Shown here piece after piece: positions 30,595-61,659 of a stretch of 64,000 bases of DNA. The notes under the pieces are model-generated. The model made no database searches. It was not told the origin of the DNA and saw nothing but the letters and a program-made list of their open reading frames with translations. Source of the stretch: Nocardioides speluncae. Its GTDB lineage: Bacteria > Actinomycetota > Actinomycetes > Propionibacteriales > Nocardioidaceae. The stretch's first letter is position 1. The number at the start of each line of letters is the position of its first letter. The stretch lies in the NCBI RefSeq assembly GCF_003121585.1, contig NZ_QEOO01000016.1:186001-250000 (forward strand). The letters run 5' to 3'. Made by a program: the position numbers and the translations under genes.

Positions 30595-30617
30595 GGCTGA
30601 AAATGTACGATCGTCGT

Positions 30618-30666
30618 GATCCCGCCACGAGTCGAGATCCGGTCGTCGTACCTCGAGATCCCGCCA
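30618..30666 (+). promoter_or_regulatory. Repeated GATCCCGCCA before aminotransferase
   Basis: GATCCCGCCA occurs at 30618 and 30657 with a partial GAGATCCGG copy between them, in the 90-base gap between the divergent rhodanese and aminotransferase genes. Possibly a regulator site; weak evidence. Confidence 0.3.
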
Positions 30667-30684
30667 AGATGCCAGACTCCATAC

Positions 30685-31860
30685 ATGACCAGCCGGACCG
30701 GCGCACCCAGGTTTGGCGTGGCGGCGCGGGCCAACGTGCCGCCGTTCCATGTCATGGACCTGCTCGCCGCGGCGCAGGAACGGCAGCGCAGCCACGGTGA
30801 CGTGGTGAACCTGGTCGCCGGCCAGCCCAGCTCCGGCGCACCGGAACCGGTACGCCGAGAGGCGCTGCGGCTGCTCGACGGCACCGACCCGCTGGGCTAC
30901 ACGGTCGCGACCGGCGTACCCGAGCTGCGCGGGGCGATCGCCGCTCACTACCGGCGCAGCTACGGGCTCGACGTCGGCCGCGACGACGTCGTGGTCACCA
31001 CGGGCAGCAGCGGCGGCTTCCTGCTCGCCTTCCTGGCGGCGTTCGAGAGCGGCGACCGGGTGGCGATGGCCAGGCCCGGCTACCCCTGCTACCGCAACGT
31101 GCTGCAGGCCCTCGGCTGCGAGGTGGTCGAGGTCGACACCGGCCCGGAGACCCGGTTCCAGCCGACCGTCGAGCAGCTGGCCGCGATCCCCGACCTGCGC
31201 GGGGTGGTGGTCGCCAGCCCGGCCAACCCCACCGGCACCATGCTGCTGCCCGACGAGCTGGCCGCGATCGCTCGCTGGTGTGAGGGCAGCGGCGTCCGGC
31301 TGATCTCCGACGAGATCTACCACGGCATCACGTACGGCGAGGGGACCGCGCGGTCCGCGTGGGAGACCAGCCGCGAGGCGGTCGTGTTCGGCAGCTTCTC
31401 GAAGTACTTCTCGATGACCGGCTGGCGGATCGGCTGGATGCTGGTGCCGGAGCTGCTGCGGCGACCGGTCGACGTACTCACCGGCAACTTCACGATCTGC
31501 CCGCCGGCTCTCGCCCAGTGGGCGGCGGTTGCCGCCTTCGACGACGCGTCGTATGCCGAGCTCGACGGGCACGTCCGCCGCTACGCGACCAACCGGTCGC
31601 TGCTGCTCGAGGGCCTGGCCGGCCTCGGGATCACCCGGCTTGCACCGGCCGACGGTGCGTTCTACGTGTACGCCGACGTCGGCCACCTCACCGACGACTC
31701 GATGGCATTCGCGCACCGCCTGCTGGCCGACACGGGTGTCGCGATCGCTCCGGGGATCGACTTCGACACCAGAGACGGATCCCGGTGGGTGCGGATGAGC
31801 TTCGCCGGCCCGTCGAGCGCCATCGTCGACGGTCTGGCCCGGCTCGCGGCCCACTTCTAG
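30685..31860 (+). CDS. Class I/II PLP-dependent aminotransferase
   Basis: A 391-residue fold-type I aminotransferase. Typical blocks are NLVAGQPSSGAPEPV (about 43-57), GVPELRGAIAAHY, VVTTGSSGGFLLAF, SPANPTGTMLLP, RLISDEIYHGITY and GSFSKYFSMTGWRIGW with the PLP Lys240. Resembles aspartate/alanine-type transaminases of subgroup I; the substrate is not evident. ATG 30685 is chosen because it is the last start before the conserved region; longer forms add an unconserved leader over the intergenic repeats. Confidence 0.9.
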   Translation: MTSRTGAPRFGVAARANVPPFHVMDLLAAAQERQRSHGDVVNLVAGQPSSGAPEPVRREALRLLDGTDPLGYTVATGVPELRGAIAAHYRRSYGLDVGRDDVVVTTGSSGGFLLAFLAAFESGDRVAMARPGYPCYRNVLQALGCEVVEVDTGPETRFQPTVEQLAAIPDLRGVVVASPANPTGTMLLPDELAAIARWCEGSGVRLISDEIYHGITYGEGTARSAWETSREAVVFGSFSKYFSMTGWRIGWMLVPELLRRPVDVLTGNFTICPPALAQWAAVAAFDDASYAELDGHVRRYATNRSLLLEGLAGLGITRLAPADGAFYVYADVGHLTDDSMAFAHRLLADTGVAIAPGIDFDTRDGSRWVRMSFAGPSSAIVDGLARLAAHF

Positions 31861-31964: not shown

Positions 31965-32420
31965 ATGTACGGCGACACCAGGGTCATCCGGCGGCTCGCG
32001 CGAGAGCTGCGCGACCAGGCCGACGAGATCAAGGACGAAGCGACCAGGCTGGTCGCGCGGACCGAGCAGGTCGAGTGGACCGGTCGCGCGGCCGGCGCCC
32101 TGCGCGAGCGGGTGGCGGCGCAATCGCGAGGGCTGCGCGTGTGTGCCGCCGAGCATGAGGAGGCGGCCGAGGCGCTCGACCGGCATGCCGCGCAGGTCGA
32201 GCGCACCAAGGAGCTGATCGCCGCGATCGAGCGCCGAGCGGCCCGCCTGGTCGACGCGGCACGGGACCGTTTGGGTGACGCCGTCGACGGGCTGGTGGGC
32301 GCGGCCGCGTCGGTGATGCCCGGCGAGGCCGGGGACGCCGCCGACCGGCTGTTGGCCCGCTTCGAGCCGCCACCACGCGGCCACCGCGACTGGCTCGCCG
32401 TCGAGCTGCCGGGACTCTGA
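31965..32420 (+). CDS. WxG-motif helical protein, module 1
   Basis: A 151-residue, almost wholly helical protein with W-T-G at residues 38-40 between two long helices, as in WXG100-superfamily type VII substrates, but with an added C-terminal helical stretch. It opens MYGDT and ends PPPRGHRDWLAVELPGL. The copy at 34881 has both features in the same places (W-Q-G at 38-40). Strong AGGGGG ribosome-binding site. One base separates it from the EspG-like gene. Likely a secreted or partner protein of the hydrolase two genes downstream; this is inference. Confidence 0.7.
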   Translation: MYGDTRVIRRLARELRDQADEIKDEATRLVARTEQVEWTGRAAGALRERVAAQSRGLRVCAAEHEEAAEALDRHAAQVERTKELIAAIERRAARLVDAARDRLGDAVDGLVGAAASVMPGEAGDAADRLLARFEPPPRGHRDWLAVELPGL

Positions 32421-32421
32421 G

Positions 32422-33207
32422 ATGACGACAGTCGAGCTGGCGCCGGCCCGGCCGCTCGATCAGGTGCCCCGCCAACTGGTGCTCGACCGACCCTCGCTGC
32501 TGGGGATCGCCGACGCGTGCCGAGTTCAGCTGGACTGGCTGCCCGGGTCCGGGGGCGCCATCAGCTGTGCCGCGGAGCCCGCGCCGGAGGTTTGTGCGGC
32601 GCTCACCCGCTTCGCGTCGGCCGCCGACGGTGTCGACCTCGACGTCGTCGTTCGCGGCCGCGACGGGACCCGTCGGGCGCGCTCCTGGCAGCGGCGCCGC
32701 GGCGGCTGGGTGACCTCGCTGGCGACGGTGGACGGCGGCGACTTCGAGCTCACGTGGTGCGCCGACAGCGGCTGGCCGGCAGTGCTGGCCCGCGCTGCTC
32801 GGGTCAGGACGTCCGGCCGGCCGCGCCTGCCGGCCGTCGTCGACCTGCCGCTCGAACTGCTGGTCGGAGTCGGAGAAGCCAGGGCGTCCGGGCGCACTCA
32901 CGTGATCGACGAGCTCGTCCGGCGGTACGCCGGGCGCCTCGGCCCCGGCGCGGATCCACGACGGCTGGTGGCCGACCTCCATACCGGCGTGCAGGGGCGG
33001 CTGCGCGCGGTCGTCGTCTCCTATGCCCCTCGCCCGGCGGCCGGTGTCATCGAGTGGCTGCTGTTCCCGGACGGCTGGCGGTCGCTAGCGACCTACCCCG
33101 GCGACGACCTCACCATGGTCCGCCTGGCAGCACGGACCGCCGACCATCTGGCGGTGGATGTCGCCGCGACGCTGACGTCGGTCGCCGCTCGCGCGAGGAG
33201 CGCGTGA
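32422..33207 (+). CDS. EspG-like protein, module 1
   Basis: A 261-residue protein. The beta-rich middle and a late motif GRLRAVVVSYAPRP...GVIEWLLFPDGWRSL (about 194-230) recall EspG chaperones that bind PE/PPE proteins in mycobacterial ESX systems. The fit is by overall pattern, not by a decisive motif, so the family call is moderate. The paralogue at 35326 has the same W-L/V-L-DGWRSL motif. Its stop overlaps the hydrolase ATG (TGATG). A chaperone role for the neighbouring WxG protein or hydrolase is inferred. Confidence 0.5.
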   Translation: MTTVELAPARPLDQVPRQLVLDRPSLLGIADACRVQLDWLPGSGGAISCAAEPAPEVCAALTRFASAADGVDLDVVVRGRDGTRRARSWQRRRGGWVTSLATVDGGDFELTWCADSGWPAVLARAARVRTSGRPRLPAVVDLPLELLVGVGEARASGRTHVIDELVRRYAGRLGPGADPRRLVADLHTGVQGRLRAVVVSYAPRPAAGVIEWLLFPDGWRSLATYPGDDLTMVRLAARTADHLAVDVAATLTSVAARARSA

Positions 33208-34697
33208 TGAGCGACCGGACGCTGCCTCCGATCACCAGCGTCACCGGCGGCAGCGGTGGGCTGGCGGCGACCTACGACCGGGTCCGCGACCTCGCCGACG
33301 ACTTCGACGGTGCCGGCAACCGAATGCGTGCCTGGGCCGGTGCCGGCGCTCGGACCCTCGGCAACGGCGATCTGATCGAGTCCGCACCGCTGTCCCCGCT
33401 GACGTTCGCCGACGCGGAGCTGTCGGTGCTCGCGGCGACGACCGGCCCACGCGGGATCCTGCCGCACTCGGCCGGCTGGGAGGCCGACGCGGTTGTGGTC
33501 CGGGCGACGGTCGCGGCTTTCGACGTGACCGACCAGATCGTGCGGGCGTCGTTCGAGGCGATCGACTACGCGATCGGCCTGCAGGCCGGGTTCCTGATCG
33601 GCCGCGGTGCCGCGCTGAGCCCGGCGTTGCTGCCTGTGCTGGCCCGGCCCCTGCTCGCTGGGGTGACGGCCTACGGTCTCTACCGCGCGCTGCCCCCGCA
33701 CCTTCGGCGCGAGCTGTCCGACGCAGCCGGCGACCTGTCCGCCCCAGCGCGACGGCGGCTGTGCAACTGGCTGGCGGCCAACCCCGAGGTGCTGCAACAC
33801 GCGATGAACGGCGGAGGCGGCCTGCTCGACGGGCTCGCCCTCGGCGCCGGTGCACCGCTTGCGGTGCCGGGGCTGGCGCCGTTCCACCCGAGCGCCAACG
33901 ACGCCGCGGGCAGCCTGGCCGGGCTGCTCGACGACGGCCGACCGGTCGTCAGCCGACGGCCGGACCTCGACCCCGAGTCGTCGCCACCACCCCGGAACCT
34001 CCAGGAGCTGCTCGCCAACCTCGACCGCCTCAACGAGCTGTCCGACCAGGACCACCCGGAGAACAACGGCACCATCCAGATCCAGCAGCTCGGCAGCGGA
34101 GAAGAGCGCCGTTACATCGTCTATCTGCCGGGCACCGACGTGATGAATCCACTCGCGGCCGGCGGCGAACATACCCGAGACATGCTCGCCAACGGGCGGC
34201 TCGTAGATGGCGAGCAGACCACCCACGGTCGCGGCGTACTCGAGGCGCTGCGGCAGGCCGGCGTACCTCCTGACGCGCCGCTGCTGCTCGCCGGGCACTC
34301 GCAGGGCGGGATGCAGGCGGCGCACCTTGCCGCGACCGACAGCGGGTACCACGTGACCGACGTGGTCGTGGCGGGCGCACCCACCGCGCAGGTCCCAAGC
34401 CTGCCCGGCCATGTCTCGTTGCTGGCCCTGGAGAACGCCGGCGACATCGTGCCGCTGACCGACGGCGAGGACAGCCCGGACCAGCCCAACCGGACCACGG
34501 TCCGCTTCGACCAGCACGAGCCGGAGGTTCTCGACAACCACGACCTGCACCACTACGTGGCGGGGGCGGCCGCCGTCGACGCCTCCGGTCACCCGTCGAT
34601 CACGAGCGCGCTCGACCATCTGCGAACCAACGGGTTCCTCACCGGCCACGACTCCGCGGCGGTCACGACGACATTCCAGGTCACCCGTGCTCACTGA
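33207..34697 (+). CDS. Alpha/beta hydrolase with helical N-terminus, module 1
   Basis: A 496-residue protein. The N-terminal 250 residues are helical and start with a WXG-like pair of helices (TYDRVRDLADDFDGAGNRMRAW). The C-terminal 220 are an alpha/beta hydrolase with nucleophile elbow LLAGHSQGGMQAA (Ser365), a likely Asp in ENAGDIVPL and His in NHDLHHYVAG, so the triad looks complete. No signal peptide, so secretion, if any, would be by a non-Sec route such as type VII. Mycobacterial PE-PPE esterases are a loose parallel. Confidence 0.75.
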   Translation: MSDRTLPPITSVTGGSGGLAATYDRVRDLADDFDGAGNRMRAWAGAGARTLGNGDLIESAPLSPLTFADAELSVLAATTGPRGILPHSAGWEADAVVVRATVAAFDVTDQIVRASFEAIDYAIGLQAGFLIGRGAALSPALLPVLARPLLAGVTAYGLYRALPPHLRRELSDAAGDLSAPARRRLCNWLAANPEVLQHAMNGGGGLLDGLALGAGAPLAVPGLAPFHPSANDAAGSLAGLLDDGRPVVSRRPDLDPESSPPPRNLQELLANLDRLNELSDQDHPENNGTIQIQQLGSGEERRYIVYLPGTDVMNPLAAGGEHTRDMLANGRLVDGEQTTHGRGVLEALRQAGVPPDAPLLLAGHSQGGMQAAHLAATDSGYHVTDVVVAGAPTAQVPSLPGHVSLLALENAGDIVPLTDGEDSPDQPNRTTVRFDQHEPEVLDNHDLHHYVAGAAAVDASGHPSITSALDHLRTNGFLTGHDSAAVTTTFQVTRAH

Positions 34698-34880
34698 CGC
34701 CCCCCCGCCGCGGCAACTCGAAACCTAGCGGCTCATCGCGCCACGCCGAGCCCGGTGTCGATGGGAATGGCGGGCAGGTGCGACCCTGTGCCGGGCAAAG
34801 CCCGCAGTGTTTCACCGGAATTCCTTGGTTTGGGCCGGTTGAATCGGGGAAGGGGGCTCCAGAACTCCGAGGGGTGATTC

Positions 34881-35324
34881 ATGTACGGCGACACCGCCGC
34901 GATTCGTAAGCGCGCGGCTGCCCTGCGCGAGCAGGGCACCGACGTGCGGGCCATGGCCGACCGTCTGGTGGCCCAGGCCGACGCCATCGACTGGCAGGGG
35001 CGCGCCGCCGACGCCATGCGAGCCCGGATGCGCGAGCGCGCGACCCGGCTCCGGGAGTGCGCCGGTTCTCATGAGACCGCCGCCGAGTCGCTCGAACGAC
35101 ACGTCGTCGAGCTCGACCGGCTGAAGGACGCGATCGCCGACATCGAGCGCAAGGCAACCTCGCTGGTGGCCGACGCGAAGACCCGAGTCGCCGAGGTCGA
35201 CAGCCACAACGACCCCGACGGCGTACGCCGCGAACCGACGCCGGAAGACACCACGCTCACCCAGTTCACGCCACCGCCGTCCGGACACAAGGACTGGCTC
35301 ACCGTCTCACTTCCAGGGTTGTGA
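34881..35324 (+). CDS. WxG-motif helical protein, module 2
   Basis: A 147-residue paralogue of the 31965 protein: same MYGDT start, W-Q-G at 38-40, and same tail PPPSGHKDWLTVSLPGL, with a different acidic linker (HNDPDGVRREPTPEDTT). Preceded by GAGGGG. Opens the second copy of the three-gene module after a 183-base gap in which I see no gene. Confidence 0.7.
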   Translation: MYGDTAAIRKRAAALREQGTDVRAMADRLVAQADAIDWQGRAADAMRARMRERATRLRECAGSHETAAESLERHVVELDRLKDAIADIERKATSLVADAKTRVAEVDSHNDPDGVRREPTPEDTTLTQFTPPPSGHKDWLTVSLPGL

Positions 35325-35325
35325 C

Positions 35326-36255
35326 ATGGCCACCATCGACCTGACCGCTCCCGCTCCCCAGCAGGAGGGCACCCTCGAGGCGCTGCCGCGCCGGATCTCG
35401 CTCACGCTTCCCGAGCTGCAGCTGCTCGCCGACCGTGCCGGTGGTGGGGCACCGCTGCCGTTCGAGCTCAGCCAGCCCGGCCCGTCCGACGCGCTGAGCG
35501 ACCGGCTCGGGCAGAGTCCGGCCGGAGGCGAGGACGAAGCGTACGTCGCCGCGGTCGGCTCGCTGCACGACCCGGCCGAGTCGCTGGCCAGGCGCGGACT
35601 GCTCGGCGACGACGGTCCCGACGCCGGCGTGGTCGGTGCACTCGGCCTGCTCGCGACCCCCCGCGTGGCAGTCGACATCGAAGTGGTCGTCAACGGGCTG
35701 CACGCAAAGGCCTGGCACCGTCAGTCCGACGAGGCGGTCGCCACGCTGGCCACCTCCGACGGCATCGTCTTCGAGCTCGCCTGGTTCGAGGCGCCCGCCT
35801 GGCCCACCGAGCTGGCGCGGGTGGCGGTGGTGCCGGAGGACGTCGAGCTCGCCAAGTCCGCCGTACCAACCTCGGTCGATCTGCCGTTCGGACTGCTGGA
35901 GGCCAGCGGGGAGGCCGTCCGCAGTCACCGCACCGACCTGGTCCCGGTGGTGGTGTCCAGCCACGGCGGCCAGTCGTACGACGAGGCCGGTGAAGCGCTC
36001 GACGCCGGCACGGTCGGCACCGTCGTCACCGCACTTGGCAACGAGACCCACGGCCGGCTGCGGGCGCTGGTGGCAGACGTGAGCCGGTCGGGTGCTCCCG
36101 TGGTCGGCGTCGTCTCCTGGGTGCTGGTCAACGACGGCTGGCGCTCGCTCACCGGCCACCGCGTCGGCGATGAGCGCCGCGTCGCGGTCCGCAGCGTCGA
36201 ACCCGCCGATCTCGCGCCCACCCTGGCGCCCGTCCTCGCCGAGGTGACCCGATGA
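35326..36255 (+). CDS. EspG-like protein, module 2
   Basis: A 309-residue paralogue of the 32422 protein, longer because of an N-terminal insertion (about 45-90). Shared features are the start-region strand pattern, AWHRQSDEAVATLATSDG matching SWQRRRGGWVTSLATVDG of copy 1, SVDLPFGLLEASGEA versus VVDLPLELLVGVGEA, and GVVSWVLVNDGWRSL. Ends by overlapping the next gene (ATGA). Function inferred only from the EspG resemblance. Confidence 0.5.
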   Translation: MATIDLTAPAPQQEGTLEALPRRISLTLPELQLLADRAGGGAPLPFELSQPGPSDALSDRLGQSPAGGEDEAYVAAVGSLHDPAESLARRGLLGDDGPDAGVVGALGLLATPRVAVDIEVVVNGLHAKAWHRQSDEAVATLATSDGIVFELAWFEAPAWPTELARVAVVPEDVELAKSAVPTSVDLPFGLLEASGEAVRSHRTDLVPVVVSSHGGQSYDEAGEALDAGTVGTVVTALGNETHGRLRALVADVSRSGAPVVGVVSWVLVNDGWRSLTGHRVGDERRVAVRSVEPADLAPTLAPVLAEVTR

Positions 36256-37709
36256 CCGAGCAGCATCCCGAGCAGATCGTCCCCGACGAGGTCGCGGACG
36301 CTGCCAACGACCCCAACGCGGCCACCGAAGACACCACCGACGAAGCTGCCGACGAGGCCGAGGCCAAGGCAGCGGCCGAGGATGCCGCCGAGGCGGCGGC
36401 CGCGGCAAAGCGCGCCGAGGAGCAGGCGGCGGCCGACAAGTACGACCAGATGATGCGGCTCGCCGACCTCTTCGACTCGACCGGCGAGGAGATGCGGGTG
36501 CGCGCCCAGCTCGGCGCGCAGGTCCTCGGCGACGAGGACGTGGCGGAGTCGGCGGAGCTGGCGCGGGCCACCTTCACCACGGCCGAGGAGGACATCCTCG
36601 CCGCGACGTCCGGCAAGCACGGCCTGCTCTCCCGCTCGATCGAGCTCGACGCAGACGCGCTGATCGTGCGGGCCACGGTGCTGACCTATCGCTGGATCGA
36701 CGAGCTTCAGTACGCCGCCTACCGCACCCTCGGCTCGATCGCCGGACGGGCGATCGGCTACCTCGCACCCGAGGTCGAGCTCGGTGGCGCGGTCGTCTCG
36801 GCCGGCCTGATCGAGACCGACGCGCTGGACCGCGAGGGGCTCGCGGCGTACCTCAACGAGCTCGCCGACAACAACCCGGAGCTGATGGAGCACGTCACCA
36901 GCGGTGGTGGCGGACTGCTCGACAGCCTGCAGATGCGCTCGCTGCTCACCGCCGGCGTCATGGGCGGACCCGACGGCGCCGCGGCGGCACGTGGCGGGCT
37001 GCGCGCGGCCGGGGTCGAGCCGTTCCCGCACGACGCGATGTCGGCACTGCGCGACATCGCCGGCGCCTTCGAGGAGAGCGGCGAGGCCGAGTCGGCGGCA
37101 GACGCGGCGGCCGCGGAGGCAGACGTCCCCCGCAACATCGAGGAGCTGATGGCGACGCTCGAGTCGCTCGGCGCCGGCGTCGCCGTGCAGAAGCTGGCAC
37201 CAAGCCGCTACATCGCCTACCTCGCGGGCCAGGAGGCCCGCCGGGCCAGCGACGGCCCGCTGCGGCTGGTCGGCGGTGACCACTCGGCGTACGCCTCGGA
37301 GGTGGTCGGCCACATCGAGGCGGCGGTCAACGGCGACGGCGGGGCCCGGGTAATGCTGGTCGGCTCCGCGCAGGGCGGAGTCACCGCTGCGGAGATCGCG
37401 GCGGAGGCGTCGTCGGACAAGTTCGTGATCGACCAGGTGATCACCGCCGGGGCGCCGTCCGCCCAGGTGCCGGTGATCCCGGCCGAGACCAACGTGCTCT
37501 CGCTGGAGGACCGCTCCGACCCGGTCGCGTTGCTCGGTTCGCTGATCAACGCCGGCGTCACCAACCGGCTGACCGTCGTGTTCGACGGCGGCCAGGCAGA
37601 CGGTGACAGCATCTACGTCGTCGGCGGCCGCGCTGCCGACACCGCTACCCACCCGGACCTGCGCGCGGCGATCACGCGTATCCAGGAACTCGGCTTCCTA
37701 GCTGGCTGA
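36252..37709 (+). CDS. Alpha/beta hydrolase-like protein with lost catalytic residues, module 2
   Basis: A 485-residue paralogue of the 33207 hydrolase, with an extra acidic/Ala-rich N-terminal stretch (about 1-55) before the matching helical pair (KYDQMMRLADLFDSTGEEMRVR). The hydrolase fold is kept (VITAGAPSAQVPVIPAETNVLSLEDRSDPV), but the nucleophile elbow GxSxG reads GSAQG, with Ala373 in place of Ser. The segment matching the catalytic DLHHYV reads GDSIYV, so His is lost too. Likely a pseudoenzyme that keeps a binding or scaffold role. Confidence 0.72.
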   Translation: MTEQHPEQIVPDEVADAANDPNAATEDTTDEAADEAEAKAAAEDAAEAAAAAKRAEEQAAADKYDQMMRLADLFDSTGEEMRVRAQLGAQVLGDEDVAESAELARATFTTAEEDILAATSGKHGLLSRSIELDADALIVRATVLTYRWIDELQYAAYRTLGSIAGRAIGYLAPEVELGGAVVSAGLIETDALDREGLAAYLNELADNNPELMEHVTSGGGGLLDSLQMRSLLTAGVMGGPDGAAAARGGLRAAGVEPFPHDAMSALRDIAGAFEESGEAESAADAAAAEADVPRNIEELMATLESLGAGVAVQKLAPSRYIAYLAGQEARRASDGPLRLVGGDHSAYASEVVGHIEAAVNGDGGARVMLVGSAQGGVTAAEIAAEASSDKFVIDQVITAGAPSAQVPVIPAETNVLSLEDRSDPVALLGSLINAGVTNRLTVVFDGGQADGDSIYVVGGRAADTATHPDLRAAITRIQELGFLAG

Positions 37710-37839: not shown

Positions 37840-39225
37840 TTAGAGAATGTCGTGGACAAACTCGGCGAGCTGGGTGAGGTTGCGACACTCGACCATCGGC
37901 ACCAGCTCGGCGTACTCGCGGGCGGCGGAGTCGCCGGTGCCCCACTGCCGCGATGATTCCGGGTTGAGCCACCAGGCGTGCCGCGCGGAGTCGGCCATCT
38001 CGCGGAGCGCTGGCAGCGCGAGGTCGGAGTAGTTGGAGCGGGCGTCACCGAGGATCAGCAGCGACGACTTGGGGCCGAGCGCGGCGGCGTACTCGTCCTG
38101 GAACTTCGTGAACGCGCGCCCGTAGTTGGTCCGCCCCCACAGCGCGGCCTGTGAGGCGCTGGCGCCGAGGTCCGCGAGTACGTCGACGGGGTCGGCGCCG
38201 GGCCGGAAGTACGACGTCACCTCGTGCACGGTGTCGACGAAGGTGAACGCGCGCATCCCCGCGAACTGCTCGCGGAGCGCGAAGACCAGCAGCAGCGTGA
38301 ACTGCGCGAAGTTGGCGACCGACCCGCTGACGTCGCAGAGCACGACCAGCTCGGTGCGGTGCGGCCGCTTCGGCTTGTGGTGGGTGGTCAGCGGGACGCC
38401 ACCGGTGGAGATCGAGGCCCGGACGGTACGCCGGAAGTCGAGCGGGCCGCGGCGGCGAGCGTGGTGCTCCTGGGTGAGCCGGGTCGCCAGCCGCCTGGCG
38501 AGCGGGTAGATCTCGCGGCGCATGTCGGCCAGCTCGCCGCGTCGGGCGTTGATGAAGTCGATCCGGTCGATGGTCGGCCGGACCGCGATCCGCGCGACGT
38601 GCTCGGGGCCCTTCTGCTCCGCGATCCGGCGGCGGGCGTCGCCCTCGGCGAGCCGGGTGAACGCTTCCGCGCGCCCGTTCGCGGTCGCCCGTGCCGACTC
38701 CTCGTCACCCTCGCCAGAAGCAAGCAGCGCCTGCATGAGCGCGAACACCAGGCCGTCCGGATCGACCCGCTTCATCGCGGCGTACGACGACCAGGACGAC
38801 TCGCCCTCCGCCCGTCCCGGCATCGCCCCGAACCGGCCGACCGCCTCGCCGGCCAGCTGCCGGAGCCGGTCCTCCTCGTTGGTGATCAGCGCCTCCAGCA
38901 GCTCGTCGCGGAACTCCTGCAGCGCCTCCCCCGAGTCGCGGACCGTCCCCGCGTCAGAGTCCTCATCGGCCTCGGCGGCGTCGGTCGCGGCGCCGTCGCC
39001 CACCAGCCTCGGGAACCACAGGTCGAAGAGCGAGTCGAACGTCGGCCGCTGCGCCTGCCGCTTGACCAGCGTGGCGGCGTACGCCGTGCGGACCACCTCG
39101 CGCGAGTCCCAGGTCACCGACTGCAGGGCGGTCAGTGCGTCGAGATCCTCTGCGAGCGAGACCGCCAGCCCGGCCTCGCGGAGTGCCTCCACGAAGCCGA
39201 TGTGCCGGTCGAGCAGCCCGCTCAT
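37840..39225 (-). CDS. VWA-domain protein (CoxE-like)
   Basis: A 461-residue VWA CoxE-like protein. The N-terminal helical half (about 1-240) is followed by a von Willebrand A domain (about 250-440) with the MIDAS motif DVSGSVANF and a later Thr/Asp contact in AALWGRTNYG. VWA proteins of this group act with MoxR ATPases as metal-dependent chaperones or maturation factors. The MoxR gene is 7 bases upstream in the same direction, and no CO dehydrogenase genes are nearby, so the client is unknown. Confidence 0.87.
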   Translation of the reverse strand: MSGLLDRHIGFVEALREAGLAVSLAEDLDALTALQSVTWDSREVVRTAYAATLVKRQAQRPTFDSLFDLWFPRLVGDGAATDAAEADEDSDAGTVRDSGEALQEFRDELLEALITNEEDRLRQLAGEAVGRFGAMPGRAEGESSWSSYAAMKRVDPDGLVFALMQALLASGEGDEESARATANGRAEAFTRLAEGDARRRIAEQKGPEHVARIAVRPTIDRIDFINARRGELADMRREIYPLARRLATRLTQEHHARRRGPLDFRRTVRASISTGGVPLTTHHKPKRPHRTELVVLCDVSGSVANFAQFTLLLVFALREQFAGMRAFTFVDTVHEVTSYFRPGADPVDVLADLGASASQAALWGRTNYGRAFTKFQDEYAAALGPKSSLLILGDARSNYSDLALPALREMADSARHAWWLNPESSRQWGTGDSAAREYAELVPMVECRNLTQLAEFVHDIL

Positions 39226-39232
39226 GACGACC

Positions 39233-40108
39233 TCATGACCGGGAAGCTGCCAGCTTGAGCTCGCGGACGGCGCGGTCGTGGTCCGACGCGTGCTTGAGTA
39301 CGACGCCGAGGGTGCGCGCGACGGCGGCTTCGTCGAGCGAGCCGATCTGCAGCGCGACCAGGGTGCGGGCCCAGTCGACGGACTCCGCGATCGACGGCGA
39401 CTTCTTGAGCTCGAGCGCTCGCATCCGGCCGACGAACTCGACCAGCTGCGCGGCGAGCGTGTCCTCGACGCCCGGCACCTGGGAGAGCACGATCTCCCGC
39501 TCCCGCTCGGCGTCCGGGTAGTCCAGGTGCAGGTAGAGGCAGCGCCGCTTGACGGCCTCGGACAGCTCGCGGGTGGCGTTGGAGGTGAGCACGACGAACG
39601 GACGCCGTACCGCCGCGACGGTGCCGAGCTCCGGGATCGTGACCTGGAAGTCCGACAGCACCTCCAGTAGCAGCCCTTCGACCTCGACGTCGGTCTTGTC
39701 CACCTCGTCGACGAGCAGCACCGTCGGCTCGGAGCGCCGGATCGCGGTCAACAAGGGCCGGGTCAGCAGGAACTCGTCGGTGAAGATGTCGTCGTGGGTC
39801 TCCTCCCATGCCTGGTCGCCGGCGGCCTGGATCCGGAGCAGCTGCTTCTTGTAGTTCCACTCGTAGAGCGCCCGGGCCTCGTCCAGCCCCTCGTAACACT
39901 GCAGCCGCACCAGCTCAGCACCCGTCGCCCGGGCCACTGCCTTCGCCAGCTCGGTCTTGCCGACCCCGGCCGGCCCTTCGACCAGCAGCGGCTTCTCCAG
40001 CGCCCCCGCGAGGTACGCCGTCGTCGCGGTGGCCTCGTCGGCGAGATAGCCCGCCTCCCCGAGGCTCTTGGCGGCGGTGTCGGGCGAGGAGAACCAGGCA
40101 GAGGTCAC
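39233..40108 (-). CDS. MoxR-family AAA+ ATPase
   Basis: A 291-residue AAA+ ATPase: Walker A GPAGVGKT (45-52), Walker B VLLVDEVDKTD and sensor-1 region VVLTSNATRELSEAVKRRCLYLHLDYP. Works with the VWA protein encoded immediately downstream as a chaperone pair that remodels or loads cofactor into a target. Confidence 0.92.
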   Translation of the reverse strand: MTSAWFSSPDTAAKSLGEAGYLADEATATTAYLAGALEKPLLVEGPAGVGKTELAKAVARATGAELVRLQCYEGLDEARALYEWNYKKQLLRIQAAGDQAWEETHDDIFTDEFLLTRPLLTAIRRSEPTVLLVDEVDKTDVEVEGLLLEVLSDFQVTIPELGTVAAVRRPFVVLTSNATRELSEAVKRRCLYLHLDYPDAEREREIVLSQVPGVEDTLAAQLVEFVGRMRALELKKSPSIAESVDWARTLVALQIGSLDEAAVARTLGVVLKHASDHDRAVRELKLAASRS

Positions 40109-55698: not shown

Positions 55699-56109
55699 GT
55701 GGCGCTGGTTACCGAGGTACTTCTCGTCAGCGGCGTGGCACTGGACCTAGTGGGTGCTGGTGTTCTCTCCCATGCCCACAACGCCGAGTCGATCGTCGTA
55801 CTGCGCGAGAAGATCGACGAAGAGGGCACCGCATTAGGGGAGCCCGACGAGGTCTCCACTCACGCCAAGCTCCTGGCGGAAAAGCGGATCGGCTTCCTGC
55901 TCCTGACCGTCGGGCTGGTTCTCTACTTGAGCGGAGTCGTCCTGAAGAGCCCCGAGGGCCTGGCAACGATGGCGCCCATCGCGGTGGGCGTGGTGCTGGC
56001 CGGGCTCGTCACCAGCGTCGTCTTCATTCGAGTGGCCGGCAACCGGCTTCGCGCGCAGACACACCGAGCCGACGAGCAGCAAGACCCCGGCGCGCTGCCC
56101 GAGCAGTAG
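55699..56109 (+). CDS. Hypothetical membrane protein with three helices
   Basis: 136 residues with helices at about 5-22, 62-80 and 86-106, and a charged loop between the first two (LREKIDEEGTALGEPDEVSTHAK). GTG 55699 follows GGAGGG and opens directly into the first helix. I do not recognise the family. Confidence 0.65.
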   Translation: MALVTEVLLVSGVALDLVGAGVLSHAHNAESIVVLREKIDEEGTALGEPDEVSTHAKLLAEKRIGFLLLTVGLVLYLSGVVLKSPEGLATMAPIAVGVVLAGLVTSVVFIRVAGNRLRAQTHRADEQQDPGALPEQ

Positions 56110-56132
56110 CCCTCTGTTGCCATGGTGAACGC

Positions 56133-57089
56133 GTGAGAGCAGTCGTCTACGACCGGTACGGGTCGCCCGACGTGTTGCGGGTCGAGGACGTGCCGATGCC
56201 GGTGCCCGGGCCTGGGCAGGTGCGGGTCAAAGTCGCTGCTACCTCGATCAACCTCAGCGACTGGGAGGGCCTGCGCGGATCGCCTGCCTACGCTCGCATC
56301 GGCGGGCTACGCCGCCCGGCTCGGCGGATACTCGGATCGGATATCGCCGGCGTGGTCGAGGAGGTCGGCGAAGGTGTCACCGAGTTTCGACTCGGGGACG
56401 AGGTGTACGGCGACAACCTGGCGCTGATGGGAGGCTTCGCGGAGCAGGCGCTGGCACCGGAGTCCGCGCTGGCTCACAAGCCGGCCGAGCTGACGTTCGC
56501 CGAGGCGTCGACCATCCCGCAGGCGGGAGCGATCGCTCTGCAAGGCACGCGGAAGGCTGGCGCCGGTAGCCGGGTCCTGATCAACGGGGCGGGCGGAGGC
56601 TCAGGTGCCTTCGCCATCCAGCTGGCCAAACGGCTCGGTGCTCATGTCACCGGTGTCGACAACGCCGCCAAGCAGGACTTCATGCGATCCGTGGGCGCGG
56701 ACGACGTCATCGACTACCGCCGCGACGACTTCACCCGAACCGCCCAGCCTTACGACCTGATCCTTGACCTGGTCGCGCACCGTTCGGTCTTCACCTATCG
56801 CCGCGCGCTGGCACCCAGCGGCACCTACCGATGCGTCGGCGGCTCGGTCCGTTCCCTGCTGCGCGTGCTCACCATAGGCTGGGCAGCCGGCCGACTCACC
56901 GGTCGCTCGATGGGGGTCCTTGTCGTCAAGCAGGGCCCCGCCCACTTCACCCCGCTCGCCGAGCTATGCGCCACCGGCGACGTGAAGATCCACATCGACC
57001 GCACCTTCAACCTCGACGAAGTCCCCGCCGCGCTTGCCCATGTCGGAGAGGGTCGGTCCCTCGGCAAGGTGGTTGTCGTCTCCTCATAG
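56133..57089 (+). CDS. MDR-family NAD(P)-dependent alcohol dehydrogenase/quinone reductase
   Basis: A 318-residue medium-chain dehydrogenase/reductase. N-terminal GroES-like domain (DRYGSPDVLRVEDVPMPVPG; GSDIAGVVEEVGEGVTEFRLGDEVYG) and Rossmann domain with VLINGAGGGSGAFAIQLAKRLGA. It lacks the Cys cluster of the structural zinc, so it is closer to zinc-independent quinone oxidoreductases. GTG 56133 is the only sensible start. Confidence 0.88.
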   Translation: MRAVVYDRYGSPDVLRVEDVPMPVPGPGQVRVKVAATSINLSDWEGLRGSPAYARIGGLRRPARRILGSDIAGVVEEVGEGVTEFRLGDEVYGDNLALMGGFAEQALAPESALAHKPAELTFAEASTIPQAGAIALQGTRKAGAGSRVLINGAGGGSGAFAIQLAKRLGAHVTGVDNAAKQDFMRSVGADDVIDYRRDDFTRTAQPYDLILDLVAHRSVFTYRRALAPSGTYRCVGGSVRSLLRVLTIGWAAGRLTGRSMGVLVVKQGPAHFTPLAELCATGDVKIHIDRTFNLDEVPAALAHVGEGRSLGKVVVVSS

Positions 57090-57198
57090 CGCCGACCGCG
57101 TGCTCGCTTGGCGGCCGTATGACGCACACCTGCGGTTGCCGGTACCTACAACCTCACAGTGCTGTTGGGAGTGCTCGGGATAGACCTATGGTTCCTGC

Positions 57199-57660
57199 AT
57201 GGTCAATGTGCGTGACCCGCAGGACGAGCACTTCCTACAGGTAATGGCCCTGCACAAGTACTTTCTCAACGCGGACTTCCTGCGCGACGTCTTCATGCGT
57301 CGGATCAATCGCGACAAGTCGCCATCTGAGATCGACCCCGTCACGTCGATGGAGGACATGATCGCAATGAGCCTGTGGTACGCGACGGTCTACGTCGTGA
57401 TCGAAGGGTGGCGCGAAGCCAGGCTCGTCGATCCTGAACTCGACGACCTCTTGGCCGATGAGAACGTCGACAGGCTGCGCCGTTTTCGCAATCAGATTTT
57501 TCACTACCAACGCGAGTACGACAATCCCAAGCTACTCGAGTTCATGGGAACCACTGATGCCGATGCTCGAGCGGCGACAGATTGGATCAAGCGCACTCAC
57601 CAAGCACTGGGTAGAGCGATCCAGGAGGCGGCGCAGGATCTCTTGGACCGCAAGGGCTGA
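57199..57660 (+). CDS. HEPN-like protein with RNxxxH motif
   Basis: A 153-residue helical protein. RFRNQIFHYQ carries Arg97-Asn98 and His102, the R-x4-H catalytic motif of HEPN ribonucleases, including toxins and defence effectors. The HEPN call rests on this motif and the helical pattern. No partner antitoxin (such as a MNT nucleotidyltransferase) is adjacent. Opens the accessory right end, ahead of two nuclease genes on the other strand. Confidence 0.6.
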   Translation: MVNVRDPQDEHFLQVMALHKYFLNADFLRDVFMRRINRDKSPSEIDPVTSMEDMIAMSLWYATVYVVIEGWREARLVDPELDDLLADENVDRLRRFRNQIFHYQREYDNPKLLEFMGTTDADARAATDWIKRTHQALGRAIQEAAQDLLDRKG

Positions 57661-57834
57661 TGCGAGCGACCCGGCCACGCTGATGCTGAGGGGTCTGTGG
57701 GATGCTCGCGACGAAAGAAGGCCTCAGCAGACGAGTCTCAGTGCCATCAGGACTCCCAGGACCGGGCTCGAACTTCTGGGCGTCTCAACGCGGCGGAATG
57801 TGGGTGACGCTGATCCGTGCACTGGCCCGATCCG

Positions 57835-58722
57835 TCAGTTCTTGTTGAGCCCGTGGGTGCGGGTACCGAGAGCGGTCTTGTAGTGGCTCTCGACGGCGTT
57901 TACGTCGGTGCTGGCGGTGCTGGGGTCGAGGACACGCAGGACGGAGAACTGGAAGTTCGTCCGCTCGCGTTTTTTCAACTCGACGTTGCCGCCGTGACCG
58001 CTGGTTGCATAGGCCGTCCACCGCTGGAGGAGTGTGTCGTTGCCATCGGCTTTGCCGACGTATTGCCGCCCGTCGCTGAGGTCGGTGATGAGGTAGATCC
58101 CGATGACAGACGAGAGGGCAGTGCGCCATGCGGCGTACCGTGGGTCGCTGATGACGGCTTGCAGACGGTCGAAGTCGACGACGAGGTGGTCGAAGCCGGG
58201 GAATGGTTCGGGTTCTGCGTCGGCGACTTCCATGACGGGGTACCTCTGACCGGTCGTACCGTTCACCCACCACGCCCGCGGGGATGCCCACTGGATAACG
58301 AGACGGCCGGCAAGGTCAGAGAGCGCCCCGGGTAGGACCCGGAGTTCGAACTCACGTACGGGGCCGCTGTTCGGGATCTCGCCGAGGTTTTCTACGACAG
58401 CCCACAGGCGCGCTCTGGTTCCGAGGTCGGGGAGAAATACCACCCAATAGCGGCCCGGTTCCTTCTTGAAGATCTTCGTGTCCCGACTCTGCGTGCTTGT
58501 GTAGGTGAGGATCTGGTGAAAGGTTGAGTCTGCGTTGATGCCAGGAAAGCCGTCCTTGTGGACCTTCACGTACGCATGACGTATCACCATGGTCTCTGCC
58601 AGGGGGAGTCCAGCTTTCGTGAGCGCGTCGCCCAGCGTGAAGGTCGACGGGATGAGCAGTGCCGGCTCGGGCGCCTGCTTCGCCTCGACGGCAGCGGGGC
58701 CGGAGGAGGTTGCTTCGGTCAT
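57835..58722 (-). CDS. GIY-YIG nuclease-domain protein
   Basis: A 295-residue protein. Residues about 1-200 form a domain I do not recognise (YVKVHKDGFPGINADSTFHQ; RYWVVFLPDLGTRARLW). The last 90 are a GIY-YIG nuclease with GIY (208-210), YVGKA (from 221), Arg234 in LLQRWTAY, Glu278 in AVESHYK and Asn in GLNKN, all catalytic positions kept. ATG 58722 follows AAGGATGG. Read in the same direction as the Mrr-like gene 172 bases upstream; the pair looks like a defence or DNA-processing unit. Confidence 0.82.
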   Translation of the reverse strand: MTEATSSGPAAVEAKQAPEPALLIPSTFTLGDALTKAGLPLAETMVIRHAYVKVHKDGFPGINADSTFHQILTYTSTQSRDTKIFKKEPGRYWVVFLPDLGTRARLWAVVENLGEIPNSGPVREFELRVLPGALSDLAGRLVIQWASPRAWWVNGTTGQRYPVMEVADAEPEPFPGFDHLVVDFDRLQAVISDPRYAAWRTALSSVIGIYLITDLSDGRQYVGKADGNDTLLQRWTAYATSGHGGNVELKKRERTNFQFSVLRVLDPSTASTDVNAVESHYKTALGTRTHGLNKN

Positions 58723-58894
58723 GTCGCCATCCTTCACCTTGCTCACACGCGTTGGAGGGCGAATGGAACTGCAGACCAACAGGCGGCGGATTGACGGACT
58801 CCGCGCAGCGCGCGACCAGCGGCACGCCAGACAATCGGCGGGGTGAGACCCAAATTCTCTGGGCCACGAGGGCCCTCCCGAGTTTCTCGTCGGG

Positions 58895-60685
58895 CTAATC
58901 CGTTTCTGCTTCTTGTCCAGGCACCGTCGTGCGCCGGCTCGTGCCGAGGCTCGCCGAGGCTTCGAGCCCTGATGTGCCCAAGTACAGACCGACATCGAAT
59001 GAGTGATCAACTGCTACTAGCAGCGAGCGATTGTCGCCGGCCGGCGAGAGCACGACCATCTCATCCTCGTCCCCTCGGTCCAATCGACAGCTAAGCATTC
59101 GCGACGCCAGCGCGTTCGAAAGCGAGACGCTCACCCCAGCGACTGGCATCTCAATCTCGAACACTTGAAGAGCCTCAAACGGTTCGGACGCATCCACGAA
59201 GGGCAGGAACTCGTTGATGCGGCCCTTCGGGACAATCACAGGTCGCGGCTGCCAACGAAGCTCTAACTCTATACCTTCCAATGCACTCACGACGTTCTGC
59301 AATCTCACAAACTCGGACGTGGTGACCTGGCCGAAGTCTGGGAGCAATACTCGGTCAGGCGTGTGCCGCTGAAGTCGGGTATAGATCGCCACCGCCTCCC
59401 AGATCGACGGCTCGGTCTTAAGAGGGTCACTAAGTTGGAATGGTGCGAGTAGGTCCATTCCTCCCACTTGTGCCAGTGATAGCGCATGGCTTGAGTCGAG
59501 GGCACGATAAAAGTCACCGACCTTGGATGCTTCGACGGCAGGCTGACCAGCCAGCGCACCGTGTCGGAGGTGCAGTTCCCACTTCCTGTCCATCCCGCCG
59601 ATCCGCATCTCAAGCGTCACCAGGCCACTGGGATCTGTTGTTGTGAGCCAGTGATGCGCACCATCGAATCCAGACGACGTTTGTGGAGCCAAAAGAGGCA
59701 GGCTCGCTACAGCGGCTCCGGTCTCATCGAGAGCTCGAAGCTCCAATGGCGGGAACTCGGCATTGCTGATCGGCGTCACCGAGAAGACACTGCGCCCAGT
59801 CGTCGTTGTCCCAGGAGGTCCGCTGGCGTCGATGACGTCGCCGACAACGTCCTGAAACGGCGTGCCGTACGTAGCGAAGTCCTCCAACATCTGATGCTCT
59901 ACGGACCCAGGGGTGGCTTCAAAGCGAACCGTCTGACGGATAGGTCGAAGCTGGCTAGCCAACGGATGCGTCGGTATCACTCTCATGATCACGTAGCGGT
60001 CGGTGTCAATCGTGGCGAACTGCACCATTGCCGCGCCATCTGCTGCCGCCTCGTAGGCCTCCGCCTCGGTTGGGAGCTTTCCCGCTCTCACGGAAATTTC
60101 GTAGGAGTAGAACGGATCAATCTCATCGAGAATCTCGGCGAGCGCCTCGTGGCGTGTAAGAACGCTTTGAAGCAGGTCAGATTCCACGAGGCCGGCCGTC
60201 GGTCTTCCGGCTTCGATCCCAAGCGTTATCAACTCTTTGACTCGAGAAGCGCCGTCACCGAAGTAGTAGTCGACGAGTTGAGGGTTGTCCGCAGCCAGAA
60301 CATCTAAGCGAGTCCTGCCCATCCATTCCCTCGCGAAGGGAGTCTCGGGTGGCAAGCCTTGTAGCCACTCAAGCGCTTCTCGCGACGGATCCCAGGGCAT
60401 GGCGAGTGTCCAAACTGAGATTGTGCGATGAATCAGTTCCTGTTCGATGAAGCGATCCCAACTCTCTCGCACGCGAGCCTTCTGCTTGGAATCGAGGGGG
60501 CCGGTGTACCGCTTGACCTGCACGACCTCCCACGTGCCATCTCTCTTGGGCAGCAAGACGTCGATGCCGCCATCGCCGGAGGACGGCGTGATCCGACATC
60601 CACCGCCGCGATCCTTCGTCAGAGCCGCGGCGACAAACCGCTCGACCTCATCTCCACCGAGTCGCTCCCAATTGACCGTTGTCAT
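58895..60685 (-). CDS. Mrr-like restriction endonuclease-domain protein
   Basis: A 596-residue protein. Residues about 1-110 are a PD-(D/E)xK nuclease of the Mrr type: Glu15 in DEVERFVAAAL, SSGDGGIDV with Asp42, and VVQVKRY with Gln56/Lys58. The other 480 residues have no domain I can name and may be for recognition or assembly. Its base composition is less GC-rich than most of the window, suggesting transfer. Probably acts on foreign or modified DNA; the GIY-YIG gene downstream may work with it. Confidence 0.72.
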   Translation of the reverse strand: MTTVNWERLGGDEVERFVAAALTKDRGGGCRITPSSGDGGIDVLLPKRDGTWEVVQVKRYTGPLDSKQKARVRESWDRFIEQELIHRTISVWTLAMPWDPSREALEWLQGLPPETPFAREWMGRTRLDVLAADNPQLVDYYFGDGASRVKELITLGIEAGRPTAGLVESDLLQSVLTRHEALAEILDEIDPFYSYEISVRAGKLPTEAEAYEAAADGAAMVQFATIDTDRYVIMRVIPTHPLASQLRPIRQTVRFEATPGSVEHQMLEDFATYGTPFQDVVGDVIDASGPPGTTTTGRSVFSVTPISNAEFPPLELRALDETGAAVASLPLLAPQTSSGFDGAHHWLTTTDPSGLVTLEMRIGGMDRKWELHLRHGALAGQPAVEASKVGDFYRALDSSHALSLAQVGGMDLLAPFQLSDPLKTEPSIWEAVAIYTRLQRHTPDRVLLPDFGQVTTSEFVRLQNVVSALEGIELELRWQPRPVIVPKGRINEFLPFVDASEPFEALQVFEIEMPVAGVSVSLSNALASRMLSCRLDRGDEDEMVVLSPAGDNRSLLVAVDHSFDVGLYLGTSGLEASASLGTSRRTTVPGQEAETD

Positions 60686-60689
60686 GACG

Positions 60690-60723
60690 TCACCATGCTA
60701 GGTCTCGCACTAACATATGGTGA
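60690..60723. promoter_or_regulatory. Inverted repeat upstream of the Mrr-like gene
   Basis: TCACCAT at 60690 and ATGGTGA at 60717 form a perfect 7-bp inverted repeat just before the Mrr-like start codon; possibly an operator. Confidence 0.3.
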
Positions 60724-61036
60724 TCTCTCGGCGGCGCGTGTCGACTGAGATGGACCGGCCCGCCTCGGCAGGACGTGGTGCTCTCGGTTCTTTCCTTGGG
60801 CTTTGCGGACACTGCCGGCTGGATCCAAGCATGGCGGGAACGGCCCGATCATGACTTTCGTTCGCTTGCTGCGTCATTCTGGGCGGAGTGACGCAGGAAG
60901 CACGGATCCGCAGACGCGACTGGTGGAACGGCAGAGCGGACGCGGACTTTGGCCTGCGTCCTCGGTGGCAGACGTTTCAGCACGCCCGCTCCGCCGGTCT
61001 AAGCCGGTGCGATCGAGGTGCACCGGAGTCAGTTGG
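60724..61036. other. Intergenic stretch without a supported gene
   Basis: About 310 bases between the Mrr-like gene and the resolvase-like gene. Open frames exist on the plus strand but are Arg/Ser-rich, have no ribosome-binding site and match nothing I know. No tRNA, repeat or clear hairpin seen. Confidence 0.5.
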
Positions 61037-61306: not shown

Positions 61307-61345
61307 GGCCGGTGACGCTAGGTATGTCCGGTGCCGGGGCGAAAG

Positions 61346-61386: not shown

Positions 61387-61459
61387 TCTTGACCGCAACT
61401 AGTGGCTACAGCAGCCTTGTCAGCGTCAATCAACCGCTAGTCGCAGATGGGGGAAGCTC

Positions 61460-61654: not shown

Positions 61655-61659
61655 CCGGC

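What the first reader, a model, noticed from the sequence alone, without database searches (positions are those of the whole stretch)
31965..37709. Tandemly duplicated type-VII-like triad pairing an active hydrolase with a pseudoenzyme
Two copies of WxG helical protein, EspG-like protein and alpha/beta hydrolase stand head to tail. The small proteins share MYGDT, a WxG at exactly residues 38-40, and a GHxDWLxVxLPGL tail. Hydrolase 1 has GHSQG (Ser365) and a His-rich NHDLHHYV. Hydrolase 2 reads GSAQG (Ala373), and the His segment reads GDSIYV. A retained, full-length, catalytically dead paralogue next to the active one suggests division of labour (scaffold, immunity or substrate decoy). No ESX core genes are in the window.
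Basis: partly seen in the sequence, partly recalled or inferred. Interest (0 to 1): 0.82.

Follow-up and report, generated by a model that had tools for sequence, protein, structure and literature searches.

The report
Inactive-hydrolase type VII secretion module
Two neighbouring copies of a small-helical-protein, chaperone and hydrolase set occur in this Nocardioides genome; the copy whose enzyme has lost its active site is the one found in most of the genus, usually close to a type VII secretion locus, which suggests a protein now kept for a non-catalytic, secretion-linked job.

Summary
Two head-to-tail triads (31965-37709) encode homologous WxG small proteins, EspG-like proteins and hydrolase-like proteins. 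Hydrolase 1 has a Ser-Asp-His triad; hydrolase 2 has Ala for Ser and no aligned His. The model of EspG-like protein 2 matches EspG chaperones (Z 18.8; next fold 3.9); the C-terminal half of hydrolase 2 models as an alpha/beta hydrolase. The interpretation has to be turned round. Of 196 genomes of the genus (taken as Nocardioides), 139 carry the dead type and 84 the active type: 54 both, 85 dead only, 30 active only. The dead copy is the common, more conserved form; the active copy is optional. The dead type is one clade, under purifying selection, with an EspG-like gene upstream wherever enough DNA was read, and within 25 kb of eccC in 87 of 104 genomes with both on one contig. In the window's genome eccB, eccC and eccD are on another contig. 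A Y-x-W-x-D, like the YxxxD/E export motif, is in 108 of 109 dead-type proteins; most active copies lack the Tyr. Best reading: an EspG-chaperoned, PE/PPE-like type VII substrate whose hydrolase domain became non-catalytic. Export, complex and ligand are inferred.

The parts
31965..32420 (+). SP1: small helical WxG protein of the active triad, 151 aa; WTG at 32076-32084
   Evidence: PF21725 T7SS_signal 27.5 bits, cut-off 27; groups with other active-linked SPs, support 97/94
32422..33207 (+). EG1: EspG-like protein of the active triad, 261 aa
   Evidence: 37% identity over 214 columns to EG2, E 9e-20; no Pfam EspG hit of its own; not modelled
33204..34697 (+). H1: active-type hydrolase with N-terminal region homologous to that of H2; nucleophile Ser codon 34299-34301, His codon 34539-34541
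   Evidence: Abhydrolase_8 20.3 bits, cut-off 20.5; Ser, Asp and His all present
34881..35324 (+). SP2: small helical WxG protein of the dead triad, 147 aa; WQG at 34992-35000
   Evidence: PF21725 28.8 bits, cut-off 27; groups with other dead-linked SPs, 97/94
35326..36255 (+). EG2: EspG-fold protein of the dead triad, 309 aa
   Evidence: model pLDDT 88; EspG structures Z 15.4-18.8, best other 3.9; PF14011 E 1.9e-4, below cut-off
36252..37709 (+). H2: dead-type hydrolase, 485 aa; Ala373 codon 37368-37370 in place of Ser, catalytic His lost, Asp423 codon 37518-37520 kept
   Evidence: model residues 279-484 match alpha/beta hydrolases, Z up to 10.8
36687..36701 (+). Y-R-W-I-D (Tyr146 to Asp150 of H2): candidate YxxxD/E type VII export motif
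   Evidence: Y and D in 108 of 109 and W in 108 of 109 distinct profile-found dead-type proteins; in active type 2 of 27 with letters there have Tyr
30616..31860 (+). Aminotransferase class I/II, conserved left flank of the locus
   Evidence: scanned from 30682; found beside the triads in many relatives
37840..39225 (-). VWA/CoxE protein, conserved right flank
   Evidence: PF05762 E 2.9e-46; conserved flank
39233..40108 (-). MoxR-type AAA ATPase next to the VWA gene
   Evidence: AAA_5 E 6.4e-14; conserved flank

Best explanation
Each triad is a PE/PPE-EspG-like type VII substrate module. The small WxG protein (SP) is thought to pair with the N-terminal helical domain of the hydrolase-like protein (H). 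The EspG-like protein (EG) would shield the hydrophobic part of H that follows this domain until the pair reaches EccC, and the pair would then be exported, SP giving the WxG and dead-type H giving a Y-x-W-x-D motif. The triad was duplicated early in Nocardioides. One copy kept a catalytic Ser-Asp-His hydrolase and became optional. The other lost Ser and His, kept the elbow fold and a strongly conserved acid loop, and became the common copy. Its hydrolase domain most likely works as a non-catalytic binding or structural module, at the cell envelope or for the secretion system itself. Shown: homology, EspG fold of EG2, hydrolase fold of H2, loss of the catalytic residues across the clade, one clade, purifying selection, linkage to the EspG-like gene and usually to eccC. 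Inferred: the SP-H pairing, chaperoning, export, ligand binding and lack of activity.
For: Catalytic survey of 142 distinct H proteins: dead type 109, nucleophile Ala 66, Gly 36, Ser 5, Cys 1, Pro 1, Asp in 106, His at the aligned place in 0; active type 33, Ser 33, Asp 33, His 32. Dead type is one side of a branch, SH-aLRT 100, stem 1.33, in a quick tree of 112 rows (67 dead). SP trees split the same way (97/94) and EG trees nearly so: five of six active-linked EGs form a clade 100/99, dead-linked EGs 76/88. EG upstream of the dead H in 87 of 87 loci, SP in 84 of 87; in 196 of 197 dead-type rows of all loci, duplicates included, the exception starting 182 bases from a contig end. The EG2 model matches only EspG well. 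Y and D of the motif in 108 of 109. Purifying selection: median dN/dS 0.25, range 0.07-0.60, 923 pairs. Between genomes with both copies in tandem, the dead copy is the more conserved in 216 of 231 genome pairs. EccC within 25 kb of the dead H in 87 of 104 genomes with both on one contig. Fifteen relatives outside the genus have Ser in 15, Asp in 15 and an aligned His in 13, so activity looks ancestral. Actives without EG have a shorter segment between motif and hydrolase domain (7 with EG: 167-196 residues; 10 without: 85-199; Mann-Whitney p 0.025), as expected if EG binds there.
Against: No complex was modelled and no export shown. The N-terminal domain of H2 gave no PPE or WXG match: the Foldseek rows shown are mostly hydrolases and none has E up to 0.001, VIA-align rows for the helices are ESCRT-III, and no member of A1 (27) or A2 (14) hit a WXG or PPE Pfam model at E up to 0.01. 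The Y-x-W-x-D lies inside a long predicted helix (125-171), not directly after a second helix, where the known motif lies (PMC5311947, passages). H2 model confidence is moderate (pLDDT 76.8, pTM 0.52). In the window's genome the ESX genes are on another contig; in 26 of 130 genomes with a listed EccC it is on another contig, and in 8 more over 200 kb away. Eight of 138 dead-type proteins have Ser at the nucleophile place, and by a crude window 47 of 138 have some His near the lost one, though not aligned with it; L110 has both. The linker test uses related sequences and leaves out five active rows not aligned at the motif.
Confidence: 0.5

Rival explanations
1. H2 is not an exported effector but a secretion-system accessory: an EspG-bound, PPE68-like helper that stays in or near the ESX machine and supports export of other substrates. 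Loss of catalysis is then irrelevant, since the N-terminal domain does the work.
For: Strongly conserved stretches of the dead type lie outside the elbow: residues 121-171 (mean commonest-residue frequency 0.88), 172-240 (0.82) and 413-433 (0.89), against 0.75 at the elbow 366-385. The gene is the common form in the genus and usually near eccC. PPE68 is reported to have a key function in ESX-1 secretion (PMC9765416, title and abstract start in a listing only).
Against: The hydrolase fold and its acid loop (413-433) are kept as strictly as the N-terminal domain, which a purely N-terminal function would not need. 57 of 196 genomes lack the dead type, and at least 16 of these have a high-scoring EccC in the printed part of the list, so ESX does not generally need it.
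Confidence: 0.25
2. One reading: enzyme and pseudoenzyme act together (scaffold, immunity, decoy or regulatory heteromer).
For: Tandem arrangement with the active triad upstream in 22 of 87 dead loci and 17 of 80 partly overlapping named loci, downstream in none; 32 of the 54 genomes with both hold them within 6.5 kb.
Against: No positive association: 85 genomes dead only, 30 active only, 54 both. The genes of each triad largely follow their own lineage, which fits separate cognate sets.
Confidence: 0.1
3. The dead type still catalyses something with an unusual active site.
For: Ser is at the nucleophile place in 8 of 138 dead-type proteins and the acid is kept in 134 of 138; a His occurs near the lost one in up to 47 of 138. 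Ser417 is nearly invariant.
Against: No Ser, Cys or His in the hydrolase half is invariant in the 27-row alignment; the Ser of the LSLE stretch (Ser417) is also common in active copies (consensus), where another Ser is the nucleophile. Nucleophile is Ala or Gly in 128 of 138 and the aligned His is absent in 138 of 138.
Confidence: 0.07
4. H2 is a decaying pseudogene or assembly artefact.
For: None beyond the lost residues; one relative (L130) looks frameshifted.
Against: 139 of 196 genomes carry the type, dN/dS median 0.25, more conserved than the active copy in the same genomes.
Confidence: 0.01

Closest known systems
PE25-PPE41-EspG5 and related PE/PPE/EspG complexes of mycobacterial ESX systems
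   Same: Three-part logic: two helical partners sharing WxG and YxxxD/E between them, and a cytosolic EspG chaperone; EG2 has the EspG fold.
   Different: No PE or PPE family signature; WxG is on the small partner and the YxxxD-like motif on the large one, the reverse of PE/PPE as described in PMC7028111 (passages); the organism lies outside the mycolic-acid group.
LipY and other PE/PPE-linked hydrolases (PF08237)
   Same: A type VII targeting region joined to a hydrolase; changing the EspG-binding patch of M. [quoted passage not shown]
   Different: No PF08237 hit among 27 dead-type and 14 active-type members at E up to 0.01; the dead type lacks Ser and His.
LXG effectors with Lap partners and EsaE chaperone (T7SSb)
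   Same: Long effector with N-terminal helical domain, small partner genes, EspG fold predicted for EsaE (PMC11217815, passages).
   Different: Bacillota system with toxin domains; here the C-terminal half is hydrolase-like and, in H2, without its catalytic residues.
ESX-4 loci of Propionibacteriales
   Same: EccB, EccC and EccD near the triad in G021 and in the window genome on another contig.
   Different: The published account lists espG, pe and ppe in ESX-4EVOL and later clusters of mycolic-acid producers (PMC4791881, passages); here an EspG-fold gene accompanies an ESX locus in Nocardioides.
Pseudoenzymes in general
   Same: Fold kept, catalytic residues lost across a whole clade.
   Different: Linked to a type VII chaperone module; no such case in the listings.

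Membership tests
WXG100 / T7SS WXG partner (SP1, SP2) | WxG motif in a short helical protein | tested here: met
   W38 invariant and G40 in at least 90% of 37 SPs; PF21725 just over cut-off for both window SPs; helices not modelled
WXG100 / T7SS WXG partner (SP1, SP2) | Match to the WXG100 model over its cut-off, about 100 residues | tested here: not met
   PF06013 20.9 and 17.9 bits, cut-off 27.3; lengths 151 and 147
WXG100 / T7SS WXG partner (SP1, SP2) | YxxxD/E after the second helix in the same protein | tested here: not met
   The only Tyr of SP1 and SP2 is residue 2
EspG chaperone (EG2) | EspG fold | tested here: met
   All 18 Foldseek hits with E up to 0.001 are EspG; Z 15.4-18.8 for 14 entries, best other 3.9
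EspG chaperone (EG2, EG1) | Match to Pfam EspG model over cut-off | tested here: inconclusive
   EG2 21.5 bits against 27, EG1 no hit; 14 of 32 EGs hit at E up to 0.01, best 1.3e-10
EspG chaperone (EG2) | Binds the client pair and targets it to its ESX system | not testable with these tools
   No complex prediction or binding assay available
PE/PPE pair | PE or PPE family signature | tested here: not met
   No PPE hit for 27 + 14 H members at E up to 0.01; 18 of 37 SPs hit PPE weakly, best E 4.3e-4; window SPs 16.0 and 13.9 bits, cut-off 26
PE/PPE pair | Composite signal, WxG on one partner and YxxxD/E on the other | tested here: inconclusive
   Both motifs are present, on SP and on dead-type H, but placement is mid-helix and pairing is untested
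PF08237 PE-PPE hydrolase domain | Match to the Pfam model | tested here: not met
   Not among the families hit by 27 + 14 H members at E up to 0.01
Alpha/beta hydrolase, catalytic (H1) | Ser-Asp-His triad with nucleophile elbow | tested here: met
   33 of 33 Ser, 33 of 33 Asp, 32 of 33 His in active type; no activity shown
Alpha/beta hydrolase, catalytic (H2) | Ser-Asp-His triad with nucleophile elbow | tested here: not met
   Fold matched (Z up to 10.8); Ser replaced and aligned His lost
Pseudoenzyme (dead-type H) | Catalytic residues lost across a retained, constrained clade | tested here: met
   absence of activity itself not tested
ESX (T7SSa) locus | Core genes near the module | tested here: inconclusive
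   87 of 104 same-contig genomes within 25 kb, window genome on a different contig

The most novel reading that the evidence does not exclude
A genus-wide exported pseudohydrolase: Nocardioides turned a type VII-secreted hydrolase into a non-catalytic, EspG-chaperoned substrate that is now more conserved and more widespread than its active sister, and whose Y-x-W-x-D export motif is near-invariant in the lineage that lost catalysis. EspG-type chaperoning of paired substrates would then be at home in ESX systems of bacteria without mycolic acids.
Probability: 0.4. Interest if true: 0.75.

Novelty: new variant of a known kind. Interest (0 to 1): 0.6.

Why it matters
It offers a natural experiment: sister modules in the same genomes, one catalytic and one not, each with its own partner and, often, chaperone. 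This can separate what type VII targeting needs from what the cargo does. It also puts an EspG-fold protein with paired substrates near ESX genes in Propionibacteriales, whereas the account in PMC4791881 (passages) places espG, pe and ppe in a later plasmid-borne lineage of mycolic-acid producers. And it makes testable why a probably secreted enzyme would be kept, and kept more strictly, after losing catalysis.

Tried and rejected
Rejected: dead copy as obligate partner of the active one; decaying pseudogene; a substitute Ser in a valid elbow (the Ser before Ala373 is replaced by Ala, Arg, His, Thr, Cys or Gly in relatives, and the aligned His is gone). Led nowhere: P0001 against PDB sequences (two weak hits); EG profile against PDB sequences (no hit, though the fold search was clear); SP profile (best E 0.032, an ESAT-6-like protein); first scan of genome contigs with P0001 (no relative). 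Absence of PPE or WXG folds among VIA rows for H2 is no test of its N-terminal domain. Only two structure jobs were allowed, so EG1, H1, SP1 and SP2 were not modelled.

Limits on counts. Dead type was taken as 303 bits or more with profile A1 and active type as 261 bits or more with profile A2, partial matches included; the 'active' class so defined holds at least one row (G025, L065) that groups with relatives outside the genus. Some genomes are fragmented or incomplete, so absences there are uncertain. For EccC only the printed rows were used; 9 of 139 dead-type genomes had no EccC row to measure. Tandem counts are lower bounds where little upstream DNA was held. The 80 named loci were found by patterns that include the Tyr and Trp of the motif, so motif conservation is quoted from the profile-found set. 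Loci and overlap in species, and some genomes are in the first set twice. The tree was the quick kind and used 67 of the dead-type rows.
Full report
Observation. The window is G000:C1:186001-250000 of a 5.7 Mb assembly. Named loci found with the dead-type alignment (80 kept of 106) are Nocardioides, apart from three Pimelobacter and two MAGs named Actinomycetota and Propionibacteriales bacterium, so I take the genus to be Nocardioides.

Folds. EG2 modelled with pLDDT 88 from 32 sequences. Its 18 Foldseek matches with E up to 0.001 are all EspG; VIA-align gives Z 15.4-18.8 for 14 EspG entries and 3.9 for the next. By sequence alone EspG is weak: EG2 is below the Pfam cut-off and EG1 has no hit, but 14 of 32 EGs hit the model at E up to 0.01. 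H2 modelled with pLDDT 76.8 and pTM 0.52. Residues 279-484 match alpha/beta hydrolases, Z up to 10.8; Foldseek gives probabilities up to 0.97 but no E below 0.049. The N-terminal helices (29-171) are predicted with good confidence over much of their length, but no related fold was identified.

Survey of catalysis. I collected 150 H stretches from 37 long loci, 90 shorter loci and the window, 142 of them distinct. They fall into two classes. Dead type, 109: nucleophile Ala 66, Gly 36, Ser 5, Cys 1, Pro 1 (the Pro from a row that looks frameshifted); Asp 106; aligned His 0. Active type, 33: Ser 33, Asp 33, His 32. Adding 80 named loci gives 138 dead (Ala 79, Gly 49, Ser 8, Cys 1, Pro 1; Asp 134; His 0) and 42 active (Ser 42, Asp 42, His 41). 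The loop that held the His is shortened in the dead type and its alignment is loose; by a crude window up to 47 of 138 have some His nearby, and L110 has both Ser at the nucleophile place and a His in the loop. The dead class is one side of a single branch with SH-aLRT 100 and a stem of 1.33; three 'active' rows (L049, L055, L065) fall with relatives from outside the genus. Fifteen such relatives have Ser in 15, Asp in 15 and an aligned His in 13; 13 of the 15 have an SP-like and 3 an EG-like gene nearby at E up to 0.01. Activity therefore looks ancestral and its loss a single event.

Which copy is kept. In 196 genomes of the genus, 139 have the dead type and 84 the active type: both 54, dead only 85, active only 30, neither 27; Fisher odds ratio 0.57, p 0.08. 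Of the 54, 32 hold them within 6.5 kb. Where loci were read, the active copy lies upstream in 22 of 87 dead loci and in 17 of 80 named loci, partly the same species, downstream in none. Active copies of G032, G016, G004, G006 and G027, which lack the dead type, sit at the same aminotransferase-VWA-MoxR site and fall in the clade of tandem active copies (support 92). An old tandem duplication with differential loss explains this best. SP trees split into active- and dead-linked sides (97/94); in the EG tree five of six active-linked rows form a clade (100/99), with L038 outside on a long branch, and dead-linked rows group with support 76/88.

Constraint. Dead-type pairs have median dN/dS 0.25 (0.07-0.60, 923 non-independent pairs); the active type gave one usable pair, 0.30. 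In genomes with both copies in tandem, dead copies are more alike than active copies in 216 of 231 genome pairs (median 56% against 50%); over the hydrolase half in 162 of 231 (57% against 54%). The most constrained stretches of those measured are residues 121-171, 172-240 and the acid loop 413-433.

Link to type VII secretion. EccC scores over its cut-off in 180 of 196 genomes. Of 139 dead-type genomes, 104 have a listed EccC on the same contig, 87 of them within 25 kb, 94 within 50 kb and 8 over 200 kb; 26 have it on another contig, 9 had no listed row. In G021, EccC, EccD (over cut-off) and EccB (below cut-off) lie about 4 to 14 kb from the triad. In the window's genome EccC and matches to EccB and EccD are on contig C24, and no triad gene was found on C24, so here the module is not beside the core genes. 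Dead-type H has Tyr and Asp of a Y-x-W-x-D in 108 of 109 profile-found proteins; in 27 active-type proteins with letters there, Asp is in 27 and Tyr in 2. PMC5311947 (passages) gives YxxxD/E as the general secretion motif and the EspG-binding domain as the specificity element; PMC7028111 (passages) describes WxG on PPE and YxxxD/E on PE as a composite signal. Here the motifs are spread the other way round. An EG gene lies upstream in 87 of 87 dead loci and in 196 of 197 dead-type rows of all loci, the exception (L236) starting 182 bases from a contig end. Of nine active-only genomes tested for EG, six have none (G006, G016, G025, G027, G032, G087), G004 and G094 have one and G059 only a 22.6-bit match. 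Active copies without EG have a shorter middle segment (p 0.025, 7 against 10, related sequences).

Literature. PMC4791881 (passages) lists ESX-4 in Propionibacteriales and espG, pe and ppe from ESX-4EVOL on. PMC11217815 (passages) reports EspG in most T7SSa except some ESX-4 subtypes, and EspG-like folds in several Bacillota systems, so an EspG fold outside mycobacteria is not new in itself. Searches listed no report of this module or of a pseudohydrolase in a type VII system; I saw listings and, for four papers, passages, and the library lacks most subscription papers.

Verdict. The pair is real, but the survey does not support an enzyme with its inactive helper. It looks like an old duplication of an EspG-linked type VII module in which the non-catalytic copy became the widespread one. 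Export and chaperoning remain inferred.

Noticed in passing
window 37840-40108: A VWA/CoxE gene and a MoxR-type AAA ATPase gene converge on the triads and stay beside them in many relatives. PMC11217815 (passage) reports a vWA protein as a T7SSc component, so a functional link is possible.
   Followed up: partly
window 56001-64000: GC falls to 0.61-0.65 from about 0.70; the region holds an Mrr-type restriction endonuclease, a GIY-YIG match below cut-off, DUF6879 and DUF5753/HTH genes: possible defence or mobile island.
   Followed up: partly
L191-L205: Active relatives of the hydrolase with an SP-like gene (13 of 15) and sometimes an EspG-like gene (3 of 15) occur in other actinobacterial genera and families.
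   Followed up: partly
L056, L057, L106, L110, L112 (dead-type H): A few dead-type proteins carry Ser at the nucleophile place (such as GSSYG) without an aligned His; L110 also has a His in the shortened loop, possibly a partial reversal.
   Followed up: no
L130 1366-3021 (-): One dead-type gene (G086) looks frameshifted or degenerate in its hydrolase half.
   Followed up: no
G126, G129, G134: These genomes hold two high-scoring EccC genes; the dead triad is on the contig of only one of them.
   Followed up: no
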